Below, piece after piece: positions 30,462 to 48,208 of a DNA stretch of 64,000 bases. The translations under genes were made by a program, and so were the position numbers. This stretch comes from Anseongella ginsenosidimutans (GTDB taxonomy: Bacteria > Bacteroidota > Bacteroidia > Sphingobacteriales > Sphingobacteriaceae). Location: NCBI RefSeq assembly GCF_008033235.1, contig NZ_CP042432.1:1116001-1180000 (forward strand). Direction: 5' to 3'. Numbering within the stretch: the first letter of the stretch is position 1; each line of letters starts with the position of its first letter. The notes beneath the pieces are model-generated. The model was not told where the DNA came from. It made no database searches and saw only the letters and a list, made by a program, of their open reading frames with translations.

Positions 30462-32807
30462 ATGAACCCAGCCATACACAATAAACTTGTTTCTTTTATC
30501 TGGTCGATTGCAGACGACTGCCTGCGCGATGTGTACGTACGTGGTAAATACCGGGATGTCATCCTGCCCATGGTAGTGCTTCGCAGACTGGATGCTTTAC
30601 TGGAACCTACCAAGGAACAGGTGCTGGAAGAGTTGAACTTTCAGAAAAATGAGGCAAAATTTGCGGAACTAAATGAAGCTGGATTAAAGGCAGCATCCGG
30701 ATATGTGTTTTACAATACCAGTATATGGACGCTGCAGCGGCTTTACGGTAGCGCCACGAATAGCCAACAGCTACTGTTGACCCATTTTGAGGATTATCTG
30801 AACGGTTTCAGTACCAATGTGAAGGAGATCATTGAAAAATTTAAACTGAGAAGCCAGATCAGACACATGGCATCAAAAGATGTCTTACTTGCTGTCCTTG
30901 AGAAATTCACCTCGCCCCGCATTAATTTAACACCTTTCGAGAAAATCGACCCGGAGGGCCGGAAACTTCCGCCTCTATCAAATCTGGGCATGGGATATGT
31001 CTTTGAAGAGCTGATCAGGAAATTCAACGAAGAGAACAATGAAGAAGCTGGAGAACACTTTACTCCCCGCGAAGTAATTGACCTGATGACCCATCTTGTT
31101 TTCGAGCCGGTGAAAGGCAAGCTGCCCCCGGTAATGACGATCTATGACCCTGCCTGTGGAACAGGGGGAATGCTTACAGAATCACAAAATTTCATCAAAG
31201 ATGAAGAAGGTATAATCCGGGCCACGGGAGACGTTTATTTATTCGGTAAGGAAATCAATGATGAAACCTACGCTATCTGCAAGTCGGATATGATGATCAA
31301 GGGTAATAATCCTGAAAATATCCGGGTAGGTTCTACGCTTTCCACCGACGAGTTTGCCGGCAGGAATTTCAATTTTATGCTTTCGAATCCTCCCTACGGC
31401 AAGTCCTGGTCAAGTGAACAAAAATATATAAAGGATGGCAAGGATATTATCGATCCACGTTTCAAGATTAAGCTTGGCAATTACTGGGGCGAAGATGAAG
31501 ACGCCGATGCTATACCCAGGTCCTCGGACGGGCAATTGCTTTTCCTGATGGAAATGGTCAATAAAATGAAACCGCTTAGTCAAAGTCCGGAGGGAAGCCG
31601 TGTCGCGTCGGTACATAACGGATCCAGTTTATTCACAGGTGATGCAGGAGGAGGCGAAAGCAATATCCGTAGATATATCATTGAAAATGATTGGCTGGAA
31701 GCAATTATTCAATTGCCTAACAATCTGTTTTACAATACCGGCATCACCACCTATATCTGGGTGTTAAGTAATAATAAAGCCTCGGGTCGGATAGGAAAAG
31801 TTCAGCTGATCGATGCCGGACAGCTCTACAGAAAGCTTCGCAAAAACCTTGGTAACAAAAACTGTGAATTTGCCCCTGAACACATCAGGGAGATCGTAGA
31901 CGCTTACCTGAATATGCAGTCAGTAGAGCGGAAGGACAATGATGAAGGGATTGCTTCGCAGATTTTTGACAATACCGATTTCGGATATTATAAAGTAACT
32001 GTTGAACGCCCTAAGCGCCTGAATGCGCAATTTACAGCTGAGCGAATTGCCGAATTACGTTTCGACAAAGGCCTGAGGGAACCGATGCGCTGGGTTTACG
32101 AGGAATTCGGGGAAGAAGCATACACCAGCCTGCCCCGGCATGAGAAGGCCATCACTGACTGGTGTGACCGGGAGGACCTGAATCTGACTTCCAAACAACT
32201 TAAAGCGCTGTTAAGCCCCGCCACCTGGCAAAAGCAATTAAATTTACTGAAAACCGCGGGCCAGCTTATGGAATCCGTTGGGGATGCGATTTTTAATAAT
32301 TTCAATATTTTCAGGGAGAAAGTGGAAGCAAACCTGAAGGCAAAGAAAATAAAACTTTCTGCCACGGAAAGGAATATAATTCTTAACGCTGTTAGCTGGT
32401 ACGACACAAACGCTGAAAAAGTAATCAAGAGCCGGGTAAAACTTTCCGGCGACAAACTGAAAGAACTGCTTAAGCATTTAAGCTGTACCGAAAGCCAGCT
32501 GCCGGATTATGGCTATTTCGAAACTGAAAAAAGGGGCGAATATATCCAGTACGAACCTGAAAGCGACCTGCGGGATACCGAAAACGTACCCCTTAAAGCG
32601 TCCGTTTACGATTATTTTTTACGGGAAGTAAAGCCACACGTATCCGAAGCCTGGATTAACCTGGATGCTACGAAGATCGGCTACGAGATAAGCTTCAATA
32701 AATACTTCTACCGTCACAAACCTCTGAGAAGCATAGAGGAAGTGACAGCGGATATCCTGCAGCTTGAAGCTGAAAGCGATGGATTGATCAAAGAAATACT
32801 TGGGTAG
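30462..32807 (+). CDS. hsdM: Type I restriction-modification system methyltransferase subunit
   Basis: N6-adenine DNA methyltransferase of a type I system, 781 residues. The N-terminal HsdM_N helical bundle starts at residue 1. The SAM-binding motif I is at residue 229 (DPACGTGG) and the catalytic NPPY motif at 309-312. The C-terminal part is longer than in E. coli HsdM and ends with coiled, charged segments. The start is preceded by an AAAGGAAAA ribosome site. The last base of the stop is the first base of the next gene start (TAGTG). Confidence 0.95.
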   Translation: MNPAIHNKLVSFIWSIADDCLRDVYVRGKYRDVILPMVVLRRLDALLEPTKEQVLEELNFQKNEAKFAELNEAGLKAASGYVFYNTSIWTLQRLYGSATNSQQLLLTHFEDYLNGFSTNVKEIIEKFKLRSQIRHMASKDVLLAVLEKFTSPRINLTPFEKIDPEGRKLPPLSNLGMGYVFEELIRKFNEENNEEAGEHFTPREVIDLMTHLVFEPVKGKLPPVMTIYDPACGTGGMLTESQNFIKDEEGIIRATGDVYLFGKEINDETYAICKSDMMIKGNNPENIRVGSTLSTDEFAGRNFNFMLSNPPYGKSWSSEQKYIKDGKDIIDPRFKIKLGNYWGEDEDADAIPRSSDGQLLFLMEMVNKMKPLSQSPEGSRVASVHNGSSLFTGDAGGGESNIRRYIIENDWLEAIIQLPNNLFYNTGITTYIWVLSNNKASGRIGKVQLIDAGQLYRKLRKNLGNKNCEFAPEHIREIVDAYLNMQSVERKDNDEGIASQIFDNTDFGYYKVTVERPKRLNAQFTAERIAELRFDKGLREPMRWVYEEFGEEAYTSLPRHEKAITDWCDREDLNLTSKQLKALLSPATWQKQLNLLKTAGQLMESVGDAIFNNFNIFREKVEANLKAKKIKLSATERNIILNAVSWYDTNAEKVIKSRVKLSGDKLKELLKHLSCTESQLPDYGYFETEKRGEYIQYEPESDLRDTENVPLKASVYDYFLREVKPHVSEAWINLDATKIGYEISFNKYFYRHKPLRSIEEVTADILQLEAESDGLIKEILG

Positions 32808-34147
32808 TGCCAGAGACTAACCGCATAGAATATAAACGAGAACTCAGTACCGATGTGGATATTGAAAAGGAGGTCATTGCCTTTTTGAATTATCACGAAG
32901 GAGGTGCTATCTATATTGGCATTAGTGAGGCCGGCAGGATAATTGGGGTCGAGGATGCCGACGGCGATATGTTAAAAATCAAAGATCGGGTCAAAAACAA
33001 CCTTGCTCCGTCTGCGATGGGTTTGTTTGATGTGGTGACAGAAGAACGTGAGGGCAAGAACGTTATAAAAATCATTGTAGCCAGTGGCCGCGAGAAACCA
33101 TATTTCAAAAAGAAATTCGGGATGACTGAAAAGGGCTGTTACATCCGAGTGGGGACAGCCGCAGAGCCCATGCCGCAGCCGATAATCGAAAAATTATTTG
33201 CCACCCGTACCCGCGATTCCATTGGCAAGATCCGATCGAACCGTCAGGATTTAACTTTTGAACAGCTTCGAATCTATTATGAGGAAAAGAGCAAGCCACT
33301 CAACAAGCAGTTCAAAAAGAACCTGGAATTACTCACAGAAGAAGGTACCCTCAATTACGCAGCGTATTTGCTGGCCGATGAAAACAATGTTTCCATCAAA
33401 GTGGCAAAATATAAGGGTGTGAACCGGATTGATTTGATTGAGAACAATGAGTACGGTTATTGTTCGCTGATCAAAGCAACCAAAAGCGTATTAGACAAGA
33501 TTGAACTGGAGAATCGTACGGCAACACAGATCACGTCCAAAGAACGAATAGACCGGAGGCTATGGAATCCGGTAGCGCTCCGCGAAGCCGTTATCAATTC
33601 GATCGTACATAATGATTTTACCCGTGAGGTGCCACCCAAATTCGAAATCTTTTCAGACCGTATAGAAATTACCTCAGCGGGTTCATTGCCGGAGGGGTTG
33701 AGTGAAGAAGAATTCTTTGAAGGCGTTTCCATTCCCCGTAATAGGGAATTAATGCGTGTTTACAGGGATTTGGAGCTGGTGGAGCAGCTTGGATCGGGTG
33801 TGCCACGTATTTTGGGAAGCTATGGAAAGGAATGCTTCCGGTTTATGGAGAACTTTATCCGGATGACGTTCCCTGCTTCGAAAGAAGTAACCCCCCAAGT
33901 AACCCCCAAGTAACCCCCAAGTAACCCCCAAGTAAGACGCTTATTAACCGTCTTCAAGGGAGAACACAACCGGCAGGAATTGCAGGATATGCTGGGGTTA
34001 TCTGACAGGAAAAATTTCCGGACAAATTATCTGAATCCGGCCATTGAAGCAGAATTTGTTAAATTAGTAGATCCCAACAGCCCGAAAAGTAGAAGCCAGC
34101 GGTATGTATTGACAGAGTTGGGAGAACGAATAAGAAATATTGGATAG
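32807..34147 (+). pseudogene. AlbA_2/ATPase-fold protein between hsdM and hsdS, interrupted by 11-bp repeats
   Basis: Predicted regulator-like protein with an N-terminal AlbA_2 (Schlafen-like) domain (EYKRELSTDVDIEKEV, GGAIYIGISEAGRIIGV) and a C-terminal ATPase-fold HATPase_c_4 region (LREAVINSIVHNDF, ELVEQLGSGVPRI). Translation from the GTG at 32807 stops at 33911-33913 after 368 residues inside a repeat tract. Beyond the tract the same frame is open to 34147 and encodes a clean winged-helix-like tail (NRQELQDMLGLSDRKNF). A full-length protein would have about 446 residues. Such genes occur within type I loci of Bacteroidota. Confidence 0.8.
33887..33935 (+). repeat. 11-bp tandem repeat (GTAACCCCCAA) with C5/C6 tracts
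   Basis: One 12-bp unit with C6 (33891-33896) is followed by three 11-bp units with C5 (33903-33907, 33914-33918, 33925-33929). Twelve-bp units would encode repeated VTPQ in frame. The three C5 units remove three bases in total, so the downstream frame is restored but a TAA arises inside the tract. This can be a phase-variable tract or a sequencing error. Confidence 0.85.
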
Positions 34148-34151
34148 AGAA

Positions 34152-35564
34152 ATGGCCGAAGTACAAGCTATAAATACTGGAGCAAGTTGGGAAAGGACGG
34201 AACCGTTGATTTCGCACCAATCCGTTGCGAAAGATTCCGGAGATGTAGTCCCAGTGGCAAAGATGGAATTTAGTTTTAAAAAATATTCTGCTTACAAGGA
34301 CAGTGGTGCAGCGTGGCTGGGTGAGATCCCGGACCATTGGGAGCTAACGAGACTGGGCACAAAGTTCGAGGAAAGAAGAACAAAGGTTTCTGATAAAGAT
34401 TATCCACCACTATCAGTAACTAAGCAAGGTATTTTACCACAGTTGGATCAAGCTGCAAAGACCAATGATGGTGACAACAGAAAGCTTGTAAAAGCAGGTG
34501 ATTTCGTAATAAATAGTAGATCAGATAGAAAAGGCTCAAGTGGCGTGGCCAATATTGATGGTTCGGTTTCGCTCATCAATATCGCTATGGAACCAAAGGA
34601 TGTCAATCCCATGTTCTGTAACTATCTTTTAAAGAGCAATTCATTTATTGAAGAGTTCTACCGGATGGGGCATGGAATTGTAGCCGACCTCTGGACGACG
34701 AGGTTTGATGAAATGAAGGCCATCATTATTGGAATTCCACCCAAACCAGAGCAAACCGCTATCGCCAATTTTCTCAACAGAAAAATTGCGCTAATCGATA
34801 AAGCCATAGCTATCAAAGAAAAACAAATCGCCCTCCTCAAAGAGCGCAATCAGATACTTATACATAATGCCGTTACACGGGGACTGAACCCTCACGTGAA
34901 ATTAAAGCGGAGCGGGGTGGAATGGATTGGGAATATTCCGGATAATTGGGAGGTGAAGAGGTTAGCTTCTTTTGGAGCTTTTTCAAAGGGAGCTGGAATT
35001 CCACGAGATGAACTGACGGACGAAGGAGTGCCGGCAATTTTGTATGGAGACATATATACTAAGTATGAGATCGTTGTGAATAATGTTTATCATAAGATTT
35101 CTACCAAAACGGCAAAAGGCGCGAGAAAGATAGCCAAGAACGCACTTTTATTTACAGGTTCGGGTGAAACTGCGGAAGACATTGGCAAATGTGTAGTGTA
35201 TCAGGGAGATGATGCCGTTTACGTAGGAGGAGATGTTATTATCTTTGAACAAATTGAGAACGATAGCCTTTTTTTATGCTATGTTTTAAACACAAATGGG
35301 GTAAAAGTACAAAAGGCAAAACATTCGAAAGGTGAAATTATCGTTCACACTTATGCATCAAAATTGAAAGAAATACGCGTACCCATTCCGCCAAAATCGG
35401 AGCAAACGGCTATTGCTTCCCACATAGATACTACCACCACCAAAACCAACGCCGCCATCTCCCTAAAAGAAAAAGAAATCGAAAAACTAAAAGAATACAA
35501 AACAGTGCTGATCGACAGCGCGGTAACAGGTAAAATAAAAGTAGAAGAACTATGCCCAGCTTAA
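34152..35564 (+). CDS. hsdS: Type I restriction-modification system specificity subunit
   Basis: DNA-recognition subunit with two target-recognition domains and two coiled-coil spacers. First half: YKDSGAAWLGEIPDHWELTR to EQTAIANFLNRKIALIDKAI; second half: RSGVEWIGNIPDNWEVKRL to EQTAIASHIDTTTTKT and a final helical dimer region. The ATG at 34152 lies 5 bases after the end of the restored upstream frame; ATG 34263 is an alternative closer to the usual HsdS N-terminus. Length is about 470 residues. It overlaps hsdR by 13 bases. Confidence 0.9.
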   Translation: MAEVQAINTGASWERTEPLISHQSVAKDSGDVVPVAKMEFSFKKYSAYKDSGAAWLGEIPDHWELTRLGTKFEERRTKVSDKDYPPLSVTKQGILPQLDQAAKTNDGDNRKLVKAGDFVINSRSDRKGSSGVANIDGSVSLINIAMEPKDVNPMFCNYLLKSNSFIEEFYRMGHGIVADLWTTRFDEMKAIIIGIPPKPEQTAIANFLNRKIALIDKAIAIKEKQIALLKERNQILIHNAVTRGLNPHVKLKRSGVEWIGNIPDNWEVKRLASFGAFSKGAGIPRDELTDEGVPAILYGDIYTKYEIVVNNVYHKISTKTAKGARKIAKNALLFTGSGETAEDIGKCVVYQGDDAVYVGGDVIIFEQIENDSLFLCYVLNTNGVKVQKAKHSKGEIIVHTYASKLKEIRVPIPPKSEQTAIASHIDTTTTKTNAAISLKEKEIEKLKEYKTVLIDSAVTGKIKVEELCPA

Positions 35565-38500
35565 CCAATGAGCAGGCTCTGGAGTCTGCCATCGAAGAAC
35601 GGCTTACCGGCACCAGCCTGGAGAAACTGAAGGCAAAAGGCATTATAGGGACGGATATTTCGGAAAGGGCACCGGATTATCGGGCCGGTAACGGGTATTA
35701 CATCGGTTTCCCTCATCATTTCAACGCTCGGCATGCTGTTGATGAAGAACGATTTTGGGATTTTCTGGAGCGGACTCAAAAGCAGGAACTGGAGAAGTTG
35801 CAGAGGCAATCCGACTGGAAGCCCAAAATACTGGAACGGCTGGATCGTATGATAAAAAAATACGGGGTTCTTCGATTGCTACGGAAGGGATTGGAGGTCG
35901 ATGATGCCCATTTTACCTTGATGTATGTGCTGCCGCTTGCAGGCAGCAGCGAAAAGGCAAAGCAAAATTTTGAAAGCAACCAGTTTAGTGTTACCCGTCA
36001 ATTGCGTTATTCGCTGAGCAATCCAGGTGAGGAAATTGACATGGTACTTTTTGTGAATGGGTTGCCCATTGCTACAATGGAACTCAAGAACCATTGGACG
36101 GGGCAGAATGCCAAAGTACACGGTCAGAATCAATACAAGTTTCAGCGCGATATTACACAGCCTCTTCTCCATTTTGGCCGCTGTGTGGTACATTTTGTGG
36201 TGGACACGGATGAGGTGTATATGACCACCCGGCTGAACGGGGCGGAAACCTTCTTTTTACCTTTTAATAGAGGCTACAACATGGGGAAGGGCAATCCGCC
36301 TAACCCTTTCGGGCATAAGACGGCTTACTTATGGGAGAACATACTAACCAGGGAAAGCATCGCGAATATTCTGCAGCACTTTGTTCGCTTTGACGGCAAG
36401 GAAACGGATCCCTTAAGCAAAAGAACCTTGTTCTTTCCGCGCTATCATCAACTGGATGTTGTGCGAAAGATTATAGCTGATGCAAGTAAAAAGGGTGTGG
36501 GGCAAACTTACCTGATACAGCATTCCGCAGGTTCCGGTAAGTCCAACTCAATTACCTGGTCGGCCTATCAACTAATTGAAGCCTATCCTGAAAATGAATC
36601 AGTCAGGGGAAGCCGGGGCATTACCCATCCGCTGTTCGATTCTGTCATCGTCGTTACTGACCGCAGATTACTGGATAAACAGCTCCGCGAAACTATCCGG
36701 GATTTTTCGGAAGTAAAGAACATCATTGGCCCGGCATATTCTTCCCCCGAGCTTAAAGAGAACCTGGAAAGCGGAAAACGAATCATCATTACGACTATTC
36801 AGAAATTTCCGTTTATCGTGGACGGCATTGCAGATTTGAGTGACAAATGCTTCGCCGTAATTATTGATGAGGCGCATAGTAGTCAAAGCGGCAGGGCTTC
36901 CGATAATATGAACCGGGCAATGGGAAGCGGTAGCGAAGAAGACGTCGATCCTCAGGATAAGATTTTGAAAGCCATGCATTCCCGCAAAATGAGGGGTAAT
37001 GCTTCTTATCTGGCCTTCACAGCTACTCCAAAAAATGCCACCTTGGAAAAATTCGGTGTACAACAAGCGGATGGAAGTTTTAAGCCTTTTCATCTCTATT
37101 CGATGAAACAGGCCATAGAAGAGGGTTTTATTTTGGATGTGCTGGCCAATTATACCACTTACAGGAGCTATTATGAGATAAGGAAGTCAATCGAGGAAAA
37201 TCCTTTATTTGACACGGTAAAGGCGCAGAAAAAGCTTAGAGCTTTTGTAGAACGCGATCAACAAACCATAGCCATCAAGGCGGAGATCATGCTGGAACAC
37301 TTCATAACACATGTGGTTAAAAAGAAGAAGCTTAAAGGCAAGGCTAAAGCCATGGTGATTACGCAGAGCATTGAATCGGCCATTCGTTATTTTTTCGCGA
37401 TCCGGGATTTGCTGAAAGAAAAAGGAAATCCGTTTAATGCCCTAGTTGCCTTTTCAGGAACCAAGCGTGTTGACGGACTGGAATATACCGAAGAAGCAAT
37501 CAACGGCTTTGGAGAGAATGAAACGCGGGATAAATTTGATGCCGATGAATATCGGATACTGGTAGTGGCTGACAAGTACCTAACCGGTTTTGACCAGCCG
37601 AAATTAACAGCCATGTACGTGGACAAGAAATTACAGGGCGTGAAGGCTGTTCAGGCGCTATCCAGATTGAACCGGTCAGCCGATAAACTTGGAAAAAAAA
37701 CCGAAGACTTGTTCGTGCTGGATTTCTTCAACTCGACGGAAGATATTAAAACGGCTTTCGACGATTTCTATACGGCCACGACACTTAGCAAGGCAACTGA
37801 TGTAAACGTATTGCACGAGCTTAAGTCCAGTTTGGACGATGGCGCCGTTTATGAGTGGGCGGAAGTAGAGAGTTTCGTGGAAAAGTATTTTGAAGGAGTG
37901 GACGCGCAGGAATTAAGTCCCATCATCGATGTTGCCGCTGCCCGGTTCAATGACGAATTGGCACTGGGGGACAACGACAAAGCCGACTTTAAGATCAAGG
38001 CCAAGCAATTCGTGAAAATTTATGGTCAAATGGCTTCCATTCTCCCGTACGAGGTTCTGAAATGGGAAAAACTATTTTGGTTCTTAAAATTCTTGATTCC
38101 CAAACTTATTATCGCCGACCCGGAACAGGATGCTCTCGATGGGCTGCTGAATTCGGTTGATCTTTCCACCTACGGACTTGAGCGGGTAAAACTAAATACA
38201 GCAATTAGCCTGGACGCCTCGGAAACAGAACTTGATCCTCAGAATGCTAATCCAAGGGCAGTTCACGATGGAGAGCGGGCTGAAGATCCGCTTGATAATA
38301 TTATCATAAGTTTCAACGAACGGTGGTTCCAAGGCTGGGACGCCACACCTGAAGAGCAGCGGGTGAAGTTCATCAATTTAGCGCGAAGTATAAGTTCACA
38401 TCCTGACTATAAAGAAAAGTATGCCAAAAATAGCGATACTCAAAACCGGGAAATTGCCTTTCATAAGATCTTTGACGAAGTTATGGCCAAACAACGTAAG

Positions 38501-38590
38501 CACGAACTCGACCTGTACCGCTTGATTTCGCAGGATCCCGCCTTTAAATCAGCTATGCAAGGGACCCTAAAACGCATATTGGGAGTGTAG
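35552..38590 (+). CDS. hsdR: Type I restriction-modification system endonuclease/translocase subunit
   Basis: Motor and nuclease subunit of 1012 residues. The N-terminal PD-(D/E)xK nuclease site can be read as Asp163 with Glu177-x-Lys179 (IDMVLF, MELKNHW). The helicase core has Walker A AGSGKS with Lys330, DEAH at 439-442 and motif III AFTATP. A long C-terminal region contacts the methylase. It translocates DNA with ATP and cuts unmodified DNA. It overlaps hsdS at its start and precedes the mrr-like gene by 4 bases. Confidence 0.96.
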   Translation: MPSLTNEQALESAIEERLTGTSLEKLKAKGIIGTDISERAPDYRAGNGYYIGFPHHFNARHAVDEERFWDFLERTQKQELEKLQRQSDWKPKILERLDRMIKKYGVLRLLRKGLEVDDAHFTLMYVLPLAGSSEKAKQNFESNQFSVTRQLRYSLSNPGEEIDMVLFVNGLPIATMELKNHWTGQNAKVHGQNQYKFQRDITQPLLHFGRCVVHFVVDTDEVYMTTRLNGAETFFLPFNRGYNMGKGNPPNPFGHKTAYLWENILTRESIANILQHFVRFDGKETDPLSKRTLFFPRYHQLDVVRKIIADASKKGVGQTYLIQHSAGSGKSNSITWSAYQLIEAYPENESVRGSRGITHPLFDSVIVVTDRRLLDKQLRETIRDFSEVKNIIGPAYSSPELKENLESGKRIIITTIQKFPFIVDGIADLSDKCFAVIIDEAHSSQSGRASDNMNRAMGSGSEEDVDPQDKILKAMHSRKMRGNASYLAFTATPKNATLEKFGVQQADGSFKPFHLYSMKQAIEEGFILDVLANYTTYRSYYEIRKSIEENPLFDTVKAQKKLRAFVERDQQTIAIKAEIMLEHFITHVVKKKKLKGKAKAMVITQSIESAIRYFFAIRDLLKEKGNPFNALVAFSGTKRVDGLEYTEEAINGFGENETRDKFDADEYRILVVADKYLTGFDQPKLTAMYVDKKLQGVKAVQALSRLNRSADKLGKKTEDLFVLDFFNSTEDIKTAFDDFYTATTLSKATDVNVLHELKSSLDDGAVYEWAEVESFVEKYFEGVDAQELSPIIDVAAARFNDELALGDNDKADFKIKAKQFVKIYGQMASILPYEVLKWEKLFWFLKFLIPKLIIADPEQDALDGLLNSVDLSTYGLERVKLNTAISLDASETELDPQNANPRAVHDGERAEDPLDNIIISFNERWFQGWDATPEEQRVKFINLARSISSHPDYKEKYAKNSDTQNREIAFHKIFDEVMAKQRKHELDLYRLISQDPAFKSAMQGTLKRILGV

Positions 38591-43419: not shown

Positions 43420-43600
43420 GCTCACGCTCTTTATTACCTGTTCAGGCTCCACCCGCTATCTGTTTTACGTTGCCCCGCTACCTTCTTACGCTCCGTTCTA
43501 CCTGTTCAGGCTGCCCCGCTACCTTTATGCTCCTTCGCTATCTGTTTACGTTGCCCCGCTACCTTCATGCTCCTTCGCTATCTGTTTATGCTCCCCCCAG
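43420..43600. repeat. About 40-bp degenerate tandem repeats ending inside the efflux gene
   Basis: Units start with GTTGCCCCGCTACCTTC or GCTGCCCCGCTACCTTT and end with GCTATCTGTTTA. The two best copies start near 43509 and 43550; a third, poorer copy starts near 43469 and partial ones lie on either side. The last unit reaches the stop codon (43586-43588) of the minus-strand efflux gene. No gene is supported in 43323-43585. Confidence 0.65.
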
Positions 43601-46600
43601 GCTGCGGTACAGCAAAATATAGGCGTTAATGCGTTGCCTTTTCAGGCTGGTGAGGCTCAGCTCGTTTTGCAAGGCATTTTGCTGAGCGGTGATTACCTCC
43701 AGGTAAGTTGCCATCCCGCTGTTGAATAATAAACGGGCGTTGGGGATCGCTTTTTCCAAAATGGTTTTCCGTGTCTGTGCGCGGTCTATCTGTTCCTCCA
43801 GTTTCGTTAATTGCACCAGTGCGTCAGACACTTCGCCGACGGCTTGTAATACATTCGAACGGAACTCGATAACGGCATTTTCCCGCCGGATCTTTGCGGC
43901 TTCGTATTCCGTTTTCAGCCGCCGGTGGTTAAAGACGGGCTGCACCAGGTTTCCTGCAACCGTTCCAAAGAGGGAGGCAGGCGTAGTGAACCAGCTGCTG
44001 GCTTTGAACGCGTTCAGGCCCCCGGAAGCGGTAATGCTCAAAGACGGATACCTGTTCGCCTGGCTGATGCCTACTTCGGCATCCGCAGCCTGGAGCGCAT
44101 ATTCGCTTGCACGGACATCCGGGCGATAGCTCAGGAGAGCCGCGGGTACGCCGGCTGAAAGCTCTTCGGGAATGGAAAATTCTACCGGCTCCGACTTCAC
44201 AGCAATCGCCTGCGGTTCTTCTGCCATCAGGATGCTCAGCGCATTTTCCTGTATCATGAGCGCCTGTTCAAGTTCAGGAATAAGTGCAGCGGTGGTTTCC
44301 TTTTGCACTTCAGCCTGCTGCACCGCCAAAAGGCTAACCTGGCCCGCTTCATGCTGCAGCCGCATAATGCGAAGGGTACTATCCTGGAGTCCCAGATTCC
44401 TTTGGGCAATGGTTAGCTGTTCATGAAGGGTGAGCAACTGGTAATAAGCCGACGCCGTGGACGCGATCAGACGGGTTTTCAGCCAGGTCACGGCGGCTTC
44501 GCTTTGCAGGTAGTTGGCTAAAGCCGCCTTTTTCCCGAGGCCTGTCTTGTTCCAGATATCAATTTCCCAGCTAAGGTCGAGCCCTGCCAGGTAATCTTCC
44601 ATATGCTTGCTCCCGGTCGCCTCCGCCAGGTTTAGCCCATTCAGGCTGTTTTGGGAAAGGCGGGAAGTACTTGCCTGCACACCGGCATTCAGGGTGGGTA
44701 GCCAGGCTACCCGGGCTTGTTTAAGGAATTCGGCGTTTAGCCTTACCGTATTAAAAGCCGTTTGCATATCGTAGTTCCGGCTAAGCACGCTATCGATGAG
44801 GAGCTGAAGCGCGCTGTCCGTAAAGAACGCTTTCCATTCCAGGCGTGCGATGCCGGCGCTGTCTGTATTAGGAGTCGTTTGCCCGCTTTCGCTGCCGGTC
44901 CGGAACTGCCCGGGAAGTTCGGTTTCGGGGCGCTGGTATTCCCGTTTAACCGAGCAGGAGTACAACAATGCCGGTAAAACAATCAGGAGTATGATCGTTA
45001 CACCCTGCCGGAGCGCCGGTATTCTGCGCGGGGCGGCCTGCGCCTTGGCCCGCTTCGGGCGGAAACTCTTCTCCTGGAGATACTGAAAGATAATATACAA
45101 TACCGGGATAATGAAGACGCCTAATACCACGCCGGTGAGCATGCCTCCCACGGCGCCTGCACCAATAGAATGGTTACCCAGGGCTGAGCCGCCGCTTGCG
45201 CGCAGGAGCGGGATCATACCCACAATAAAGGCAAGCGATGTCATTAAAATAGGACGGAAGCGAAGGCGGGAAGCTTCTAGTGCTGAAGCCACGATGGATC
45301 TGCCGGCCTTTCGCCGCTGCACGGCGTATTCCACGATAAGAATGGCATTCTTCGCCAGCAGGCCTATGAGCATGATCAAGGCCACCTGTACGTAAATATT
45401 ATTGTCTATGCCCATCAGGTTAATGAATAGCATTACCCCGAAGACGCCCAGGGGAATGGTCAGCACCACCGCCAGGGGAAGAATATAACTTTCATACTGT
45501 GCCGAAAGCAGGAAGTAAATGAAAACCAGGCTCATGATGAAAATGATGATCGTTTGCGAACCGGCTTTCTTTTCTTCGCGGGTCATGCCCGTCCATTCGT
45601 ACCCGAAGCTGCGGGGCAATACCTGCGCCGCGGTTTCCTCAATGGCGGTAATGGCATCCCCTGTGCTGTAGCCCGGCGCCGGTTTCCCGTTAATGGTCAC
45701 GGCGTTGTACAAATTGTTCCTGGTAACGGTTTCCGGGCCGTACACCTGGTCAAGGGTCACCATTGCATTGACCGCGACCATTTCCCCGTCCTTGTTCTTT
45801 ACATAAATATCGTCGAGCGAAGAAGGGTCGCTGCGGTATTCTACATCAGCCTGGGCAATGACACGATAGAACTTCCCGAACCGGTTAAAGTCCGAAATAA
45901 AGGCGCTCCCGAAATAGATTTGCAGGGTCTCCAGCAGGTCGCTCACGTTAACGCCGAGCTGCTTCGTCCTTTTTTCATCCACCACGATCTCGTACTGGGG
46001 ATTATTAGCTGCAAAAGTGGTAAAGGCAAACGCGATTTCTTCCCGTTGCATCAGGGCGCCGATAAAACGTTGCGCGGTGGTATCCAGGTGCTGCATATTG
46101 CCATTTCCGCGGTCCTGCAGCATAAATTCGAAACCGTCCACGTTACCGAAGCCGGAAACGGTCGGAAAGGTAAAGAATACAGCCTGGGCGCCTTTTACCT
46201 GCTGCGCCACCTTTTGGGTGAGGCTGGCCGCAATGGCTTCGTAATCTTTGATGGGGCCGCGGTCTTCCTTGTCCTTCGTCCGGATAAAACCGGCGCCGTA
46301 AGGAGCGGCCTGGGCATTGGAAATAAAGTTGAGCCCGTCCACCTGGTAATGATTCTTTGTGAAGGCTTCCTTGCTGACGATCTCTTCGATCTGCTCCATG
46401 GCTTTATGCGTCCGTTCCAGGGAGCTTCCCGGCGGCGTATTTACCGCGTACAGTACGAATCCCTGGTCCTCGGTAGGAATAAAGCCCGTAGGGGTATTGC
46501 GCAGCATCATGAACGTAACGGCGGTTACCAGCGCCAGTCCTGAAAGAGCTACCCACTTTCTGCGGAAGAGAAAACGAAGCGAGGCCAGGTATTTCGAAGT

Positions 46601-48184
46601 AATCGCATTGAACGCGATATTAAAGGCATTGAAAAAGCGTTTGATAAAGCCTTGTTTTTTCCCTGCCGCCTCTTCACCATGACCTGTTTCTCCCGTATCC
46701 AGGAATAAGGCGCATAATGCCGGACTCAGCGTAAGGGCGTTGAACGCCGAAATGAGGATCGCAATGGCCAGGGTGAAGGCAAACTGCTTGTAAAATACCC
46801 CTACCGGGCCCTGCATAAAGGTTACCGGAACAAATACTGCGGCCATCACCAGGGTAATGGAAACAATAGCGCCCGATATTTCCTTCATCGACTCCAGGGT
46901 GGCATCTCTGGCTGGCAGGCCGGTTCGCTCCATCTTGGAGTGGACCGCTTCCACCACCACGATAGCGTCATCTACCACAATACCGATGGCCAGTACAAGG
47001 GCAAACAATGTAAGCAGGTTAATACTGAAGCCGAATACCTGCAGGAAAAAGAAGGTGCCGATAATGGCTACCGGTACGGCAATGGCAGGGATCAGGGTGG
47101 CACGGAAGCCCTGCAGGAAGATGAAAACCACGACGAATACCAGGATGAAGGCTTCAACCAGCGTATGATTTACCTGGCTGATGGATTCATCCAGGAAATC
47201 CTTGGCATTGAACATGATCACCGGCTCTATGCCTGCAGGCAGCGTTTCCGAGAATTCTTTGATCTGGTTTTCCGCTTCGATAAGGATCTCGTTGGCGTTA
47301 GAGCCCGCGGTTTGCAGCAAGGCGATGCCGGAGGTTGGGCCGCCGTTCAGGCGGCTGTTGGCGGCATAGGAAAATGAACCGAAGGATACCCGCGCCAGGT
47401 CCTTCACGCGGATGACTGAGCCATCGTTATTGGCTTTTACAATGATGTTTTCATAGTCTTTTGGTTCATTCAGCTTGCCCTTATATTTCAGGACATATTC
47501 AAATACTTCTTCGCTTCCCTGTCCGAAACGGCCGGGAGCAGCCTCCCGGTTCTGACCGTCGATGGCGCGGATAACTTCCTGCGGAGATAATCCATAGGCG
47601 GCCAGGCGATCAGGCTTCAGCCAGATGCGCATGCTGTATTCCCGGCTCCCGAAGGGCTGCACTTCCGCTACGCCGCGGATCCGCTGCATGCGGGGAATAA
47701 GATTGATCTTGATATAGTTCTGAATGAAGGTTTCGTCATATAAGCTGTCTTGAGAGGTCAGGGCCACGAACATCAGGAAGCTGTTCTGCTGTTTTTGCGT
47801 AGATATCCCTGCCTCGATCACTTCCTGCGGAATTTTATTACTCGCCTTGGAAACGCGGTTCTGGACGTTCACCGCCGCTACATCCGGGTCGGTACCCTGC
47901 TCGAAGAAAACGTTCAGGGTCATCGTACCGTCATTACTTGAATTGGAAGTCATATAGGTCATGCCCTCCACGCCGTTGACGGCTTCTTCTATGGGCGTTG
48001 CCACTGAGCGGGCCACTACCTCGGCATTAGCGCCGGGGTAAGTCGCAGTAACGACAACGGTGGGCGGGGCAATATCCGGGAACTGCGAAATGGGAAGCCT
48101 GGTAATGGAAATGATGCCGAGTATGACCAAAATGATGGCCATTACGGTTGATAAAACCGGTCGTTCGATGAATATTTTTAACAT
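43586..48184 (-). CDS. RND efflux permease fused to an outer-membrane factor
   Basis: A single open frame of 1532 residues. Residues 1 to about 1045 form a complete HAE1/AcrB-type inner-membrane pump: TM1 near 11-29, proton-relay Asp405-Asp406 in GIVVDDAIVVVEA, and the usual second periplasmic half. After a short basic linker comes a hydrophobic stretch (VTIILLIVLPALLYSC, Cys1077) resembling a lipoprotein signal, and then a complete NodT/TolC-like outer-membrane factor (to 1532). No in-frame ATG, GTG or TTG was seen at the junction. It expels drugs or toxic compounds together with the adaptor encoded upstream. Confidence 0.9.
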   Translation of the reverse strand: MLKIFIERPVLSTVMAIILVILGIISITRLPISQFPDIAPPTVVVTATYPGANAEVVARSVATPIEEAVNGVEGMTYMTSNSSNDGTMTLNVFFEQGTDPDVAAVNVQNRVSKASNKIPQEVIEAGISTQKQQNSFLMFVALTSQDSLYDETFIQNYIKINLIPRMQRIRGVAEVQPFGSREYSMRIWLKPDRLAAYGLSPQEVIRAIDGQNREAAPGRFGQGSEEVFEYVLKYKGKLNEPKDYENIIVKANNDGSVIRVKDLARVSFGSFSYAANSRLNGGPTSGIALLQTAGSNANEILIEAENQIKEFSETLPAGIEPVIMFNAKDFLDESISQVNHTLVEAFILVFVVVFIFLQGFRATLIPAIAVPVAIIGTFFFLQVFGFSINLLTLFALVLAIGIVVDDAIVVVEAVHSKMERTGLPARDATLESMKEISGAIVSITLVMAAVFVPVTFMQGPVGVFYKQFAFTLAIAILISAFNALTLSPALCALFLDTGETGHGEEAAGKKQGFIKRFFNAFNIAFNAITSKYLASLRFLFRRKWVALSGLALVTAVTFMMLRNTPTGFIPTEDQGFVLYAVNTPPGSSLERTHKAMEQIEEIVSKEAFTKNHYQVDGLNFISNAQAAPYGAGFIRTKDKEDRGPIKDYEAIAASLTQKVAQQVKGAQAVFFTFPTVSGFGNVDGFEFMLQDRGNGNMQHLDTTAQRFIGALMQREEIAFAFTTFAANNPQYEIVVDEKRTKQLGVNVSDLLETLQIYFGSAFISDFNRFGKFYRVIAQADVEYRSDPSSLDDIYVKNKDGEMVAVNAMVTLDQVYGPETVTRNNLYNAVTINGKPAPGYSTGDAITAIEETAAQVLPRSFGYEWTGMTREEKKAGSQTIIIFIMSLVFIYFLLSAQYESYILPLAVVLTIPLGVFGVMLFINLMGIDNNIYVQVALIMLIGLLAKNAILIVEYAVQRRKAGRSIVASALEASRLRFRPILMTSLAFIVGMIPLLRASGGSALGNHSIGAGAVGGMLTGVVLGVFIIPVLYIIFQYLQEKSFRPKRAKAQAAPRRIPALRQGVTIILLIVLPALLYSCSVKREYQRPETELPGQFRTGSESGQTTPNTDSAGIARLEWKAFFTDSALQLLIDSVLSRNYDMQTAFNTVRLNAEFLKQARVAWLPTLNAGVQASTSRLSQNSLNGLNLAEATGSKHMEDYLAGLDLSWEIDIWNKTGLGKKAALANYLQSEAAVTWLKTRLIASTASAYYQLLTLHEQLTIAQRNLGLQDSTLRIMRLQHEAGQVSLLAVQQAEVQKETTAALIPELEQALMIQENALSILMAEEPQAIAVKSEPVEFSIPEELSAGVPAALLSYRPDVRASEYALQAADAEVGISQANRYPSLSITASGGLNAFKASSWFTTPASLFGTVAGNLVQPVFNHRRLKTEYEAAKIRRENAVIEFRSNVLQAVGEVSDALVQLTKLEEQIDRAQTRKTILEKAIPNARLLFNSGMATYLEVITAQQNALQNELSLTSLKRQRINAYILLYRSLGGA

Positions 48185-48208
48185 CTGGGTAAGAATTTAA
48201 CCTTTCTT

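What the first reader, a model, noticed from the sequence alone, without database searches (positions are those of the whole stretch)
32807..34147. Possible phase-variable switch gene inside a type I restriction locus
The AlbA_2/ATPase-fold gene between hsdM and hsdS stops inside a tract of one 12-bp (C6) and three 11-bp (C5) units, yet the downstream frame is in register and free of stops to 34147. Because the three C5 units remove exactly three bases, the tail keeps its reading frame, and only the tract itself is blocked by TAA. A gain of C or a change in unit number would restore a protein of about 446 residues. Since hsdS starts 5 bases after that frame ends, the switch could also set hsdS expression through coupling. 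The family and its place in type I loci are known; phase variation here is inference.
Basis: partly seen in the sequence, partly recalled or inferred. Interest (0 to 1): 0.7.

Follow-up and report, generated by a model that had tools for sequence, protein, structure and literature searches.

The report
Broken Schlafen effector with hypervariable linker
A bacterial defence gene sitting inside a restriction system is cut short because the short repeat that spells its hinge has changed from 12-letter to 11-letter units; relatives show that this hinge grows, shrinks and swaps its DNA-binding end, but not that it is an on/off switch.

Summary
The sequence facts hold. An SLFN_AlbA_2 + HATPase_c_4 gene between hsdM and hsdS stops at TAA 33911-33913. 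The stop lies inside one 12-bp and three 11-bp units, and the downstream frame is open to 34147. That tail is a conserved winged-helix domain (PF21247), so a full gene is broken only at its linker.

Relatives show what the tract is: 83 intact homologues, 75 with a 12-bp tandem array (2.5-11 copies) at this point. Array length changes by whole 12-bp units (two genes identical over 1050 nt carry 5 and 4 units), and array plus wHTH is swapped as a cassette on nearly constant heads. None is broken in the array; one (L076) is unreadable there because of an N.

A reversible switch is weakly supported. No single C gain or loss reopens the frame, nor does any unit gain; only removal of all three 11-bp units does. 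Coupling to hsdS is doubtful, because the conserved HsdS start is about 34263. The assembly shows no general homopolymer collapse.

Most likely this is a recent null allele of a known kind of R-M/BREX-associated Schlafen effector. Two relatives carry stop-free three-unit 11-bp arrays, open only at unit numbers in steps of three: the most interesting lead.

The parts
30462..32807 (+). hsdM, type I modification subunit, intact (781 aa)
   Evidence: Pfam N6_Mtase 4.9e-58, HsdM_N 6.8e-22; orthologues 76% L183, 68% L041, 67% L184
32807..33913 (+). Schlafen-like (AlbA_2) + GHKL/histidine-kinase-type ATPase gene, truncated at TAA 33911-33913
   Evidence: Pfam PF04326 3.1e-19, PF13749 1.3e-15; 83-87% identical to intact full-length homologues L003-L007
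33887..33898 (+). first array unit, 12 bp GTAACCCCCCAA (V-T-P-Q)
   Evidence: sequence; L005 has 4 x GTCACCCCCCAA at the same place
33899..33931 (+). three 11-bp units GTAACCCCCAA; the head frame runs into TAA at 33911-33913
33914..34147 (+). tail behind the stop, intact: Fic-like_C winged helix, in register with the head
   Evidence: PF21247 1.2e-23; dN 0.14, dS 1.9 against L005
34140..35564 (+). hsdS ORF; conserved start probably ATG 34263, with an in-frame extension (34140/34152-34262) absent from homologues
   Evidence: Methylase_S 1.2e-17; homologues align from residue 41-49; L183 HsdS start compared
35552..38590 (+). hsdR, intact (1012 aa)
   Evidence: HSDR_N, SWI2_SNF2, T1R_D3-like; 73% to L183
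38595..39515 (+). Mrr-type restriction endonuclease next to the operon
   Evidence: Mrr_cat 3.8e-36, Mrr_N 6.3e-31; PADLOC mREase_IV 3.2e-89

Best explanation
The gene is an accessory Schlafen-like RNase/GHKL-ATPase/winged-helix effector lodged in the hsdM-hsdS slot of an otherwise intact type I R-M operon. Its interdomain linker is written in a short tandem array that normally has 12-bp (4-residue) units. In this family the array lengthens and shortens in frame and marks the point where the C-terminal winged helix is exchanged. In this genome the array has acquired three 11-bp units that carry TAA in frame, so the product ends after the ATPase and lacks its winged helix. Most likely this is a recent loss-of-function allele made by slippage in the array, tolerated because the effector is dispensable, rather than one position of a reversible switch. 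Shown: domains, break, conserved tail, array behaviour in relatives, slot occupancy. Inferred: RNase activity, effector role, order of mutations, loss of function.
For: Domains: SLFN_AlbA_2, HATPase_c_4 and Fic-like_C. Fold matches of an intact homologue: 3lmm, Schlafen N-domains 7fex and 7cux, histidine kinases, and Fic protein 4rgl for the wHTH. The model is only fair (mean pLDDT 68; linker 360-371 below 50). A profile of the family aligns E3, E8 and D40 with acidic residues of SLFN11 that have the spacing of the SLFN13 active site; in SLFN13 mutating any of the three reduced cleavage (PMC5862951). E3 and E8 are invariant in 83 of 83 aligned heads, window included. Position 40 is D in 77 of 83 but Ser in the window; N or G occurs in five intact relatives. 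Array: 75 of 83 intact homologues have a 12-bp period. L049/L050 heads are identical over 1050 nt with 5 and 4 units. Eight head pairs at 85-90% nt identity carry different tail classes; the L004/L005 identity block runs from the start codon to the array edge. Slot: empty in L183 and L184, RhuM in L041, this gene in the window. Decayed copies occur in the same family (L010-L013). Known kind: Schlafen RNase + minimal histidine kinase + wHTH as backup effectors in BREX-type loci (PMC12839542).
Against: The head shows no other sign of decay: 1 deviation at 125 conserved columns, median 1. The tail is conserved. So the break is very recent, or reversible, or not real. Tail frame retention fits chance (1 in 3) but also fits selection for frame.
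Confidence: 0.6

Rival explanations
1. Phase-variable switch: the array is in an OFF state and returns to ON by unit loss or by changes in the C tracts, altering the effector and perhaps hsdS.
For: The array is in a class that slips by units. Head and tail are both conserved and in register. Loss of exactly three units reopens the frame. L054 and L085 show open 11-bp arrays whose frame depends on unit number modulo 3.
Against: No single-C change and no unit gain reopens the window frame. 0 of 83 homologues are off in the array. The 11-bp form of this unit was found in no other genome searched. Orthologous operons do without the gene.
Confidence: 0.13
2. Assembly or sequencing artefact: three of four C6 tracts under-called as C5.
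For: The break is three 1-bp losses in C homopolymers; nothing else in the gene is broken; L005 has C6 in all four units.
Against: The G/C homopolymer spectrum of this genome (6/5 ratio 0.16, 57 six-runs in 400 kb) equals that of three related genomes (0.16-0.17), long-ORF coverage lies within their range, the first unit is called C6, and 11-bp units occur independently in L054 and L085.
Confidence: 0.15
3. The truncated 368-residue protein is functional: the Schlafen and ATPase domains act without the winged helix, with altered regulation.
For: Both N-terminal domains are complete and conserved; the break lies exactly between domains.
Against: All 83 intact homologues keep a C-terminal domain of one of two classes. 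The putative third catalytic carboxylate is Ser here.
Confidence: 0.12

Closest known systems
Schlafen RNase - minimal histidine kinase - wHTH proteins linked to BREX and related loci (PMC12839542)
   Same: Same domain order; embedded in defence operons; predicted backup abortive-infection RNase
   Different: Here inside a type I hsdM-hsdS slot and truncated before the wHTH; searches of the paper library found no mention of the tandem-repeat linker
EcoR124I/II HsdS TAEL repeat (PMC3874165)
   Same: 12-bp, 4-residue coding repeat in a type I locus that changes copy number and re-spaces two domains
   Different: There in hsdS and changing DNA specificity; here in the adjacent effector, with no known effect
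PrrC / EcoprrI (PMC3874165)
   Same: Accessory (here predicted) ribonuclease gene embedded in a type I operon
   Different: PrrC is a different protein family (anticodon nuclease); sequestration by the R-M complex was not tested here
mlo/rlo accessory ORFs of Campylobacter jejuni hsd loci (Miller 2005, cited in PMC5183652)
   Same: Variable cargo genes between hsd genes
   Different: Identity of the Campylobacter cargo was not compared; here the slot holds this effector, RhuM or nothing
SSR-based phasevarions of R-M systems
   Same: Tandem repeat whose unit is not a multiple of three, inside a gene of an R-M locus
   Different: No off-states in relatives, no reversion by a one-unit change, and the R-M genes themselves untouched

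Membership tests
Schlafen - histidine-kinase-type ATPase - wHTH effector family | N-terminal SLFN_AlbA_2 domain | tested here: met
   PF04326 3.1e-19; Schlafen structures among fold matches of a homologue
Schlafen - histidine-kinase-type ATPase - wHTH effector family | GHKL ATPase (HATPase_c_4) | tested here: met
   PF13749 1.3e-15; conserved residues of that domain present
Schlafen - histidine-kinase-type ATPase - wHTH effector family | C-terminal wHTH in the same protein | tested here: not met
   Encoded and conserved but behind TAA 33911-33913; the locus is a member by descent, the predicted product is not complete
Schlafen - histidine-kinase-type ATPase - wHTH effector family | Three acidic catalytic residues (E-x4-E ... 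D) | tested here: inconclusive
   E3 and E8 present; position 40, aligned with the SLFN Asp, is Ser in the window; 5 intact relatives also lack D
Schlafen - histidine-kinase-type ATPase - wHTH effector family | RNase activity triggered by phage | not testable with these tools
   needs expression and phage assays
SSR phase-variable gene (contingency locus) | Repeat unit not a multiple of 3 within the ORF | tested here: met
   three 11-bp units
SSR phase-variable gene (contingency locus) | A single-unit change restores or destroys the frame | tested here: not met
   plus or minus 1, minus 2 and plus n units all stay closed; only loss of three opens
SSR phase-variable gene (contingency locus) | On and off alleles among relatives | tested here: not met
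   83 intact, 0 array frameshifts (one array unreadable because of an N); only about one genome per species was available
SSR phase-variable gene (contingency locus) | Mixed repeat lengths within a population | not testable with these tools
   no reads held
Type I R-M operon | Intact hsdM, hsdS and hsdR in tandem | tested here: met
   orthologous operons L183, L184, L041

The most novel reading that the evidence does not exclude
The linker array of this defence-effector family is a contingency device. 12-bp units tune linker length and serve as the crossover point for exchanging DNA-binding cassettes. Occasional conversion to 11-bp units (window, L054, L085: three such units in each) turns the same array into a gate that is open only at unit numbers in steps of three, with stop-bearing units locking it off.
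Probability: 0.2. Interest if true: 0.65.

Novelty: new variant of a known kind. Interest (0 to 1): 0.42.

Why it matters
If the array behaves as the relatives suggest, a widespread bacterial Schlafen-type defence effector carries a built-in, fast-mutating hinge at which whole DNA-binding ends are exchanged, much as HsdS exchanges target-recognition domains. That would give a testable account of how such effectors are re-aimed or retired. For this genome it means that the R-M system is probably intact while its accessory effector is disabled.

Tried and rejected
Systematic homopolymer collapse in the assembly: rejected as a general explanation by the run-length spectrum. L076 as a second off-state: rejected, the break coincides with an N in the array. 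Degeneration of the whole gene: not seen. Strain-level variation: E. coli genomes gave no match, plasmids only six records, viral contigs five loci and none for the tail. RNA element or unusual RNA structure around the tract: Rfam none, fold z-score -0.07. Ribosomal frameshifting through the tract: by inspection three separate -1 slips would be needed, judged implausible. Published mention of the tetrapeptide arrays: none found. A guess at the organism's genus led nowhere.

Full report
What is there. The window lies in a single-contig 4.32-Mb genome. The family is probably Sphingobacteriaceae: G044, placed in the same family by the tool, has a contig of the same length and an identical head sequence to a Parapedobacter composti record (the family name is from general knowledge). 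A type I operon hsdM-[this gene]-hsdS-hsdR is followed by an Mrr-type endonuclease. The gene starts with GTG on the hsdM stop and encodes SLFN_AlbA_2 and HATPase_c_4 domains. It ends at TAA 33911-33913, inside GTAACCCCCCAA + 3 x GTAACCCCCAA. The next 77 codons are open, in register, and are a Fic-like_C winged helix (1.2e-23).

Is the tail still a gene part? Yes. Against the nearest intact homologue (L005) tail dN is 0.14 and dS 1.9; the head gives 0.087 and 1.43. The head deviates at 1 of 125 strongly conserved columns, the median for the family. One position outside that set is of note: position 40. A profile of the family aligns E3, E8 and D40 with acidic residues of SLFN11 whose spacing, counted on that alignment, agrees with E205/E210/D248 of SLFN13 (PMC5862951). 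The window has Ser at 40, where 77 of 83 have Asp; five intact relatives have Asn or Gly. So the break is recent or not real, and there may be one further lesion.

What the tract is. In 83 complete intact homologues, mostly from Bacteroidota and Comamonadaceae, the spot between ATPase and C-terminal domain was scanned for tandem arrays. In 75 of them the period is exactly 12 bp, 2.5 to 11 copies. The units differ widely (VTPQ, VTEQ, LVDG, GGQV, GGAI, PESR, SKGE). V-T-x-Q units go mostly with PF21247-like tails (class of 55 genes), and GGxI/LVDG-type units mostly with a second tail class (28 genes). Array length is mutable: L049 and L050 are identical over the first 1050 nt but have 5 and 4 units, and L048 (99.5%) has 8. 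The array is also a cassette boundary. Eight pairs with 85-90% head identity have different tail classes, and for L004/L005 and L003/L004 the similarity begins at the start codon and ends at the array. Similar arrays precede winged helices in more distant members of the family.

Is it a switch? Enumeration: no gain or loss of one or two C in any single unit reopens the frame. Every C5 unit entered in frame is followed by GTAA and reads AAG TAA. Among arrays of C5 and C6 units only those with no C5 unit are open. One contraction, loss of all three C5 units, would do it. None of the 83 homologues is off in the array. L088, L095 and L097 are broken towards the N-terminus; L128 is short at 362 residues and was not examined further; L076 has an N in the array. 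About one genome per species was available, so population variation is untested.

Is it an artefact? G/C runs of six against five: 0.16 in 400 kb of this genome, 0.16-0.17 in three related assemblies; coverage by long ORFs lies within their range. A general homopolymer problem is therefore unlikely; a local error is possible.

11-bp arrays elsewhere. L054 has three perfect 11-bp units and L085 three (one variant, two perfect), and both genes are open. Simulated changes show that they stay open only when the number changes by multiples of three. The window is a third case with three units, but its unit contains TAA. This supports 11-bp conversion as a real event in the family and is the basis of the novel case. 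It is three loci, two of them from metagenome assemblies, and no variation was observed.

Context. Close orthologues of this operon have nothing between hsdM and hsdS (L183, HsdM 76%; L184, 67%; about 24 nt between the aligned reading frames). L041 has a gene there that reads as RhuM (identified by eye from its translation, not by a family search), plus a decayed copy of this gene downstream of hsdR. The slot thus takes accessory cargo, as described for mlo genes of Campylobacter (PMC5183652). HsdS homologues align from residue 41-49 of the window ORF, so its conserved start is probably ATG 34263 and tight coupling to the upstream frame is doubtful. Among downstream same-strand neighbours of the family, 16 of 40 have ResIII, 13 HSDR_N and 4 Methylase_S domains, so linkage to restriction systems is common but not universal.

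What it works like. The architecture Schlafen RNase + minimal histidine kinase + wHTH is described as a backup effector across BREX-related systems in over 1000 taxa (PMC12839542). Fold matches of an intact homologue agree with each part, on a model of only moderate confidence. The 12-bp coding repeat is analogous, not homologous, to the TAEL repeat of EcoR124 HsdS (PMC3874165). RNase activity, a trigger, and any effect of linker length are inference.

Verdict. A real, narrowly placed break in an accessory defence gene, lying in a family-wide mutable linker array. Reversible switching is possible but poorly supported. The array's behaviour across the family is the more interesting result.

Noticed in passing
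L054 6115-6147; L085 6104-6136 (approximate): Two intact relatives carry open 11-bp arrays with three units each; the frame is kept only when unit number changes by multiples of three.
   Followed up: partly
L003-L007, L044-L046: Nearly constant Schlafen-ATPase heads (85-90% nt) carry different array+wHTH cassettes; the identity block runs from the start codon to the array edge in L004/L005. Comamonadaceae loci L078-L099 look similar at the array but fell in one tail class.
   Followed up: partly
L041 (between hsdM and hsdS; downstream of hsdR): The orthologous operon has a RhuM-like gene in the hsdM-hsdS slot, and a decayed copy of this Schlafen-like gene after hsdR, with a deletion joining the ATPase to the end of the array.
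   Followed up: partly
window 34140-34262: In-frame 41-codon N-terminal extension of the hsdS ORF not found in HsdS homologues.
   Followed up: no
G000:C1:1461057-1464380 (L204, L002): A distant paralogue (27%) without an evident tandem array, with a decayed Fic-like_C tail remnant about 2 kb away.
   Followed up: no
window 43435-43594: Another tandem array (40-bp period, 3.3 copies, score 180) just beyond the low-coordinate end of the 43589-48196 minus-strand ORF.
   Followed up: no
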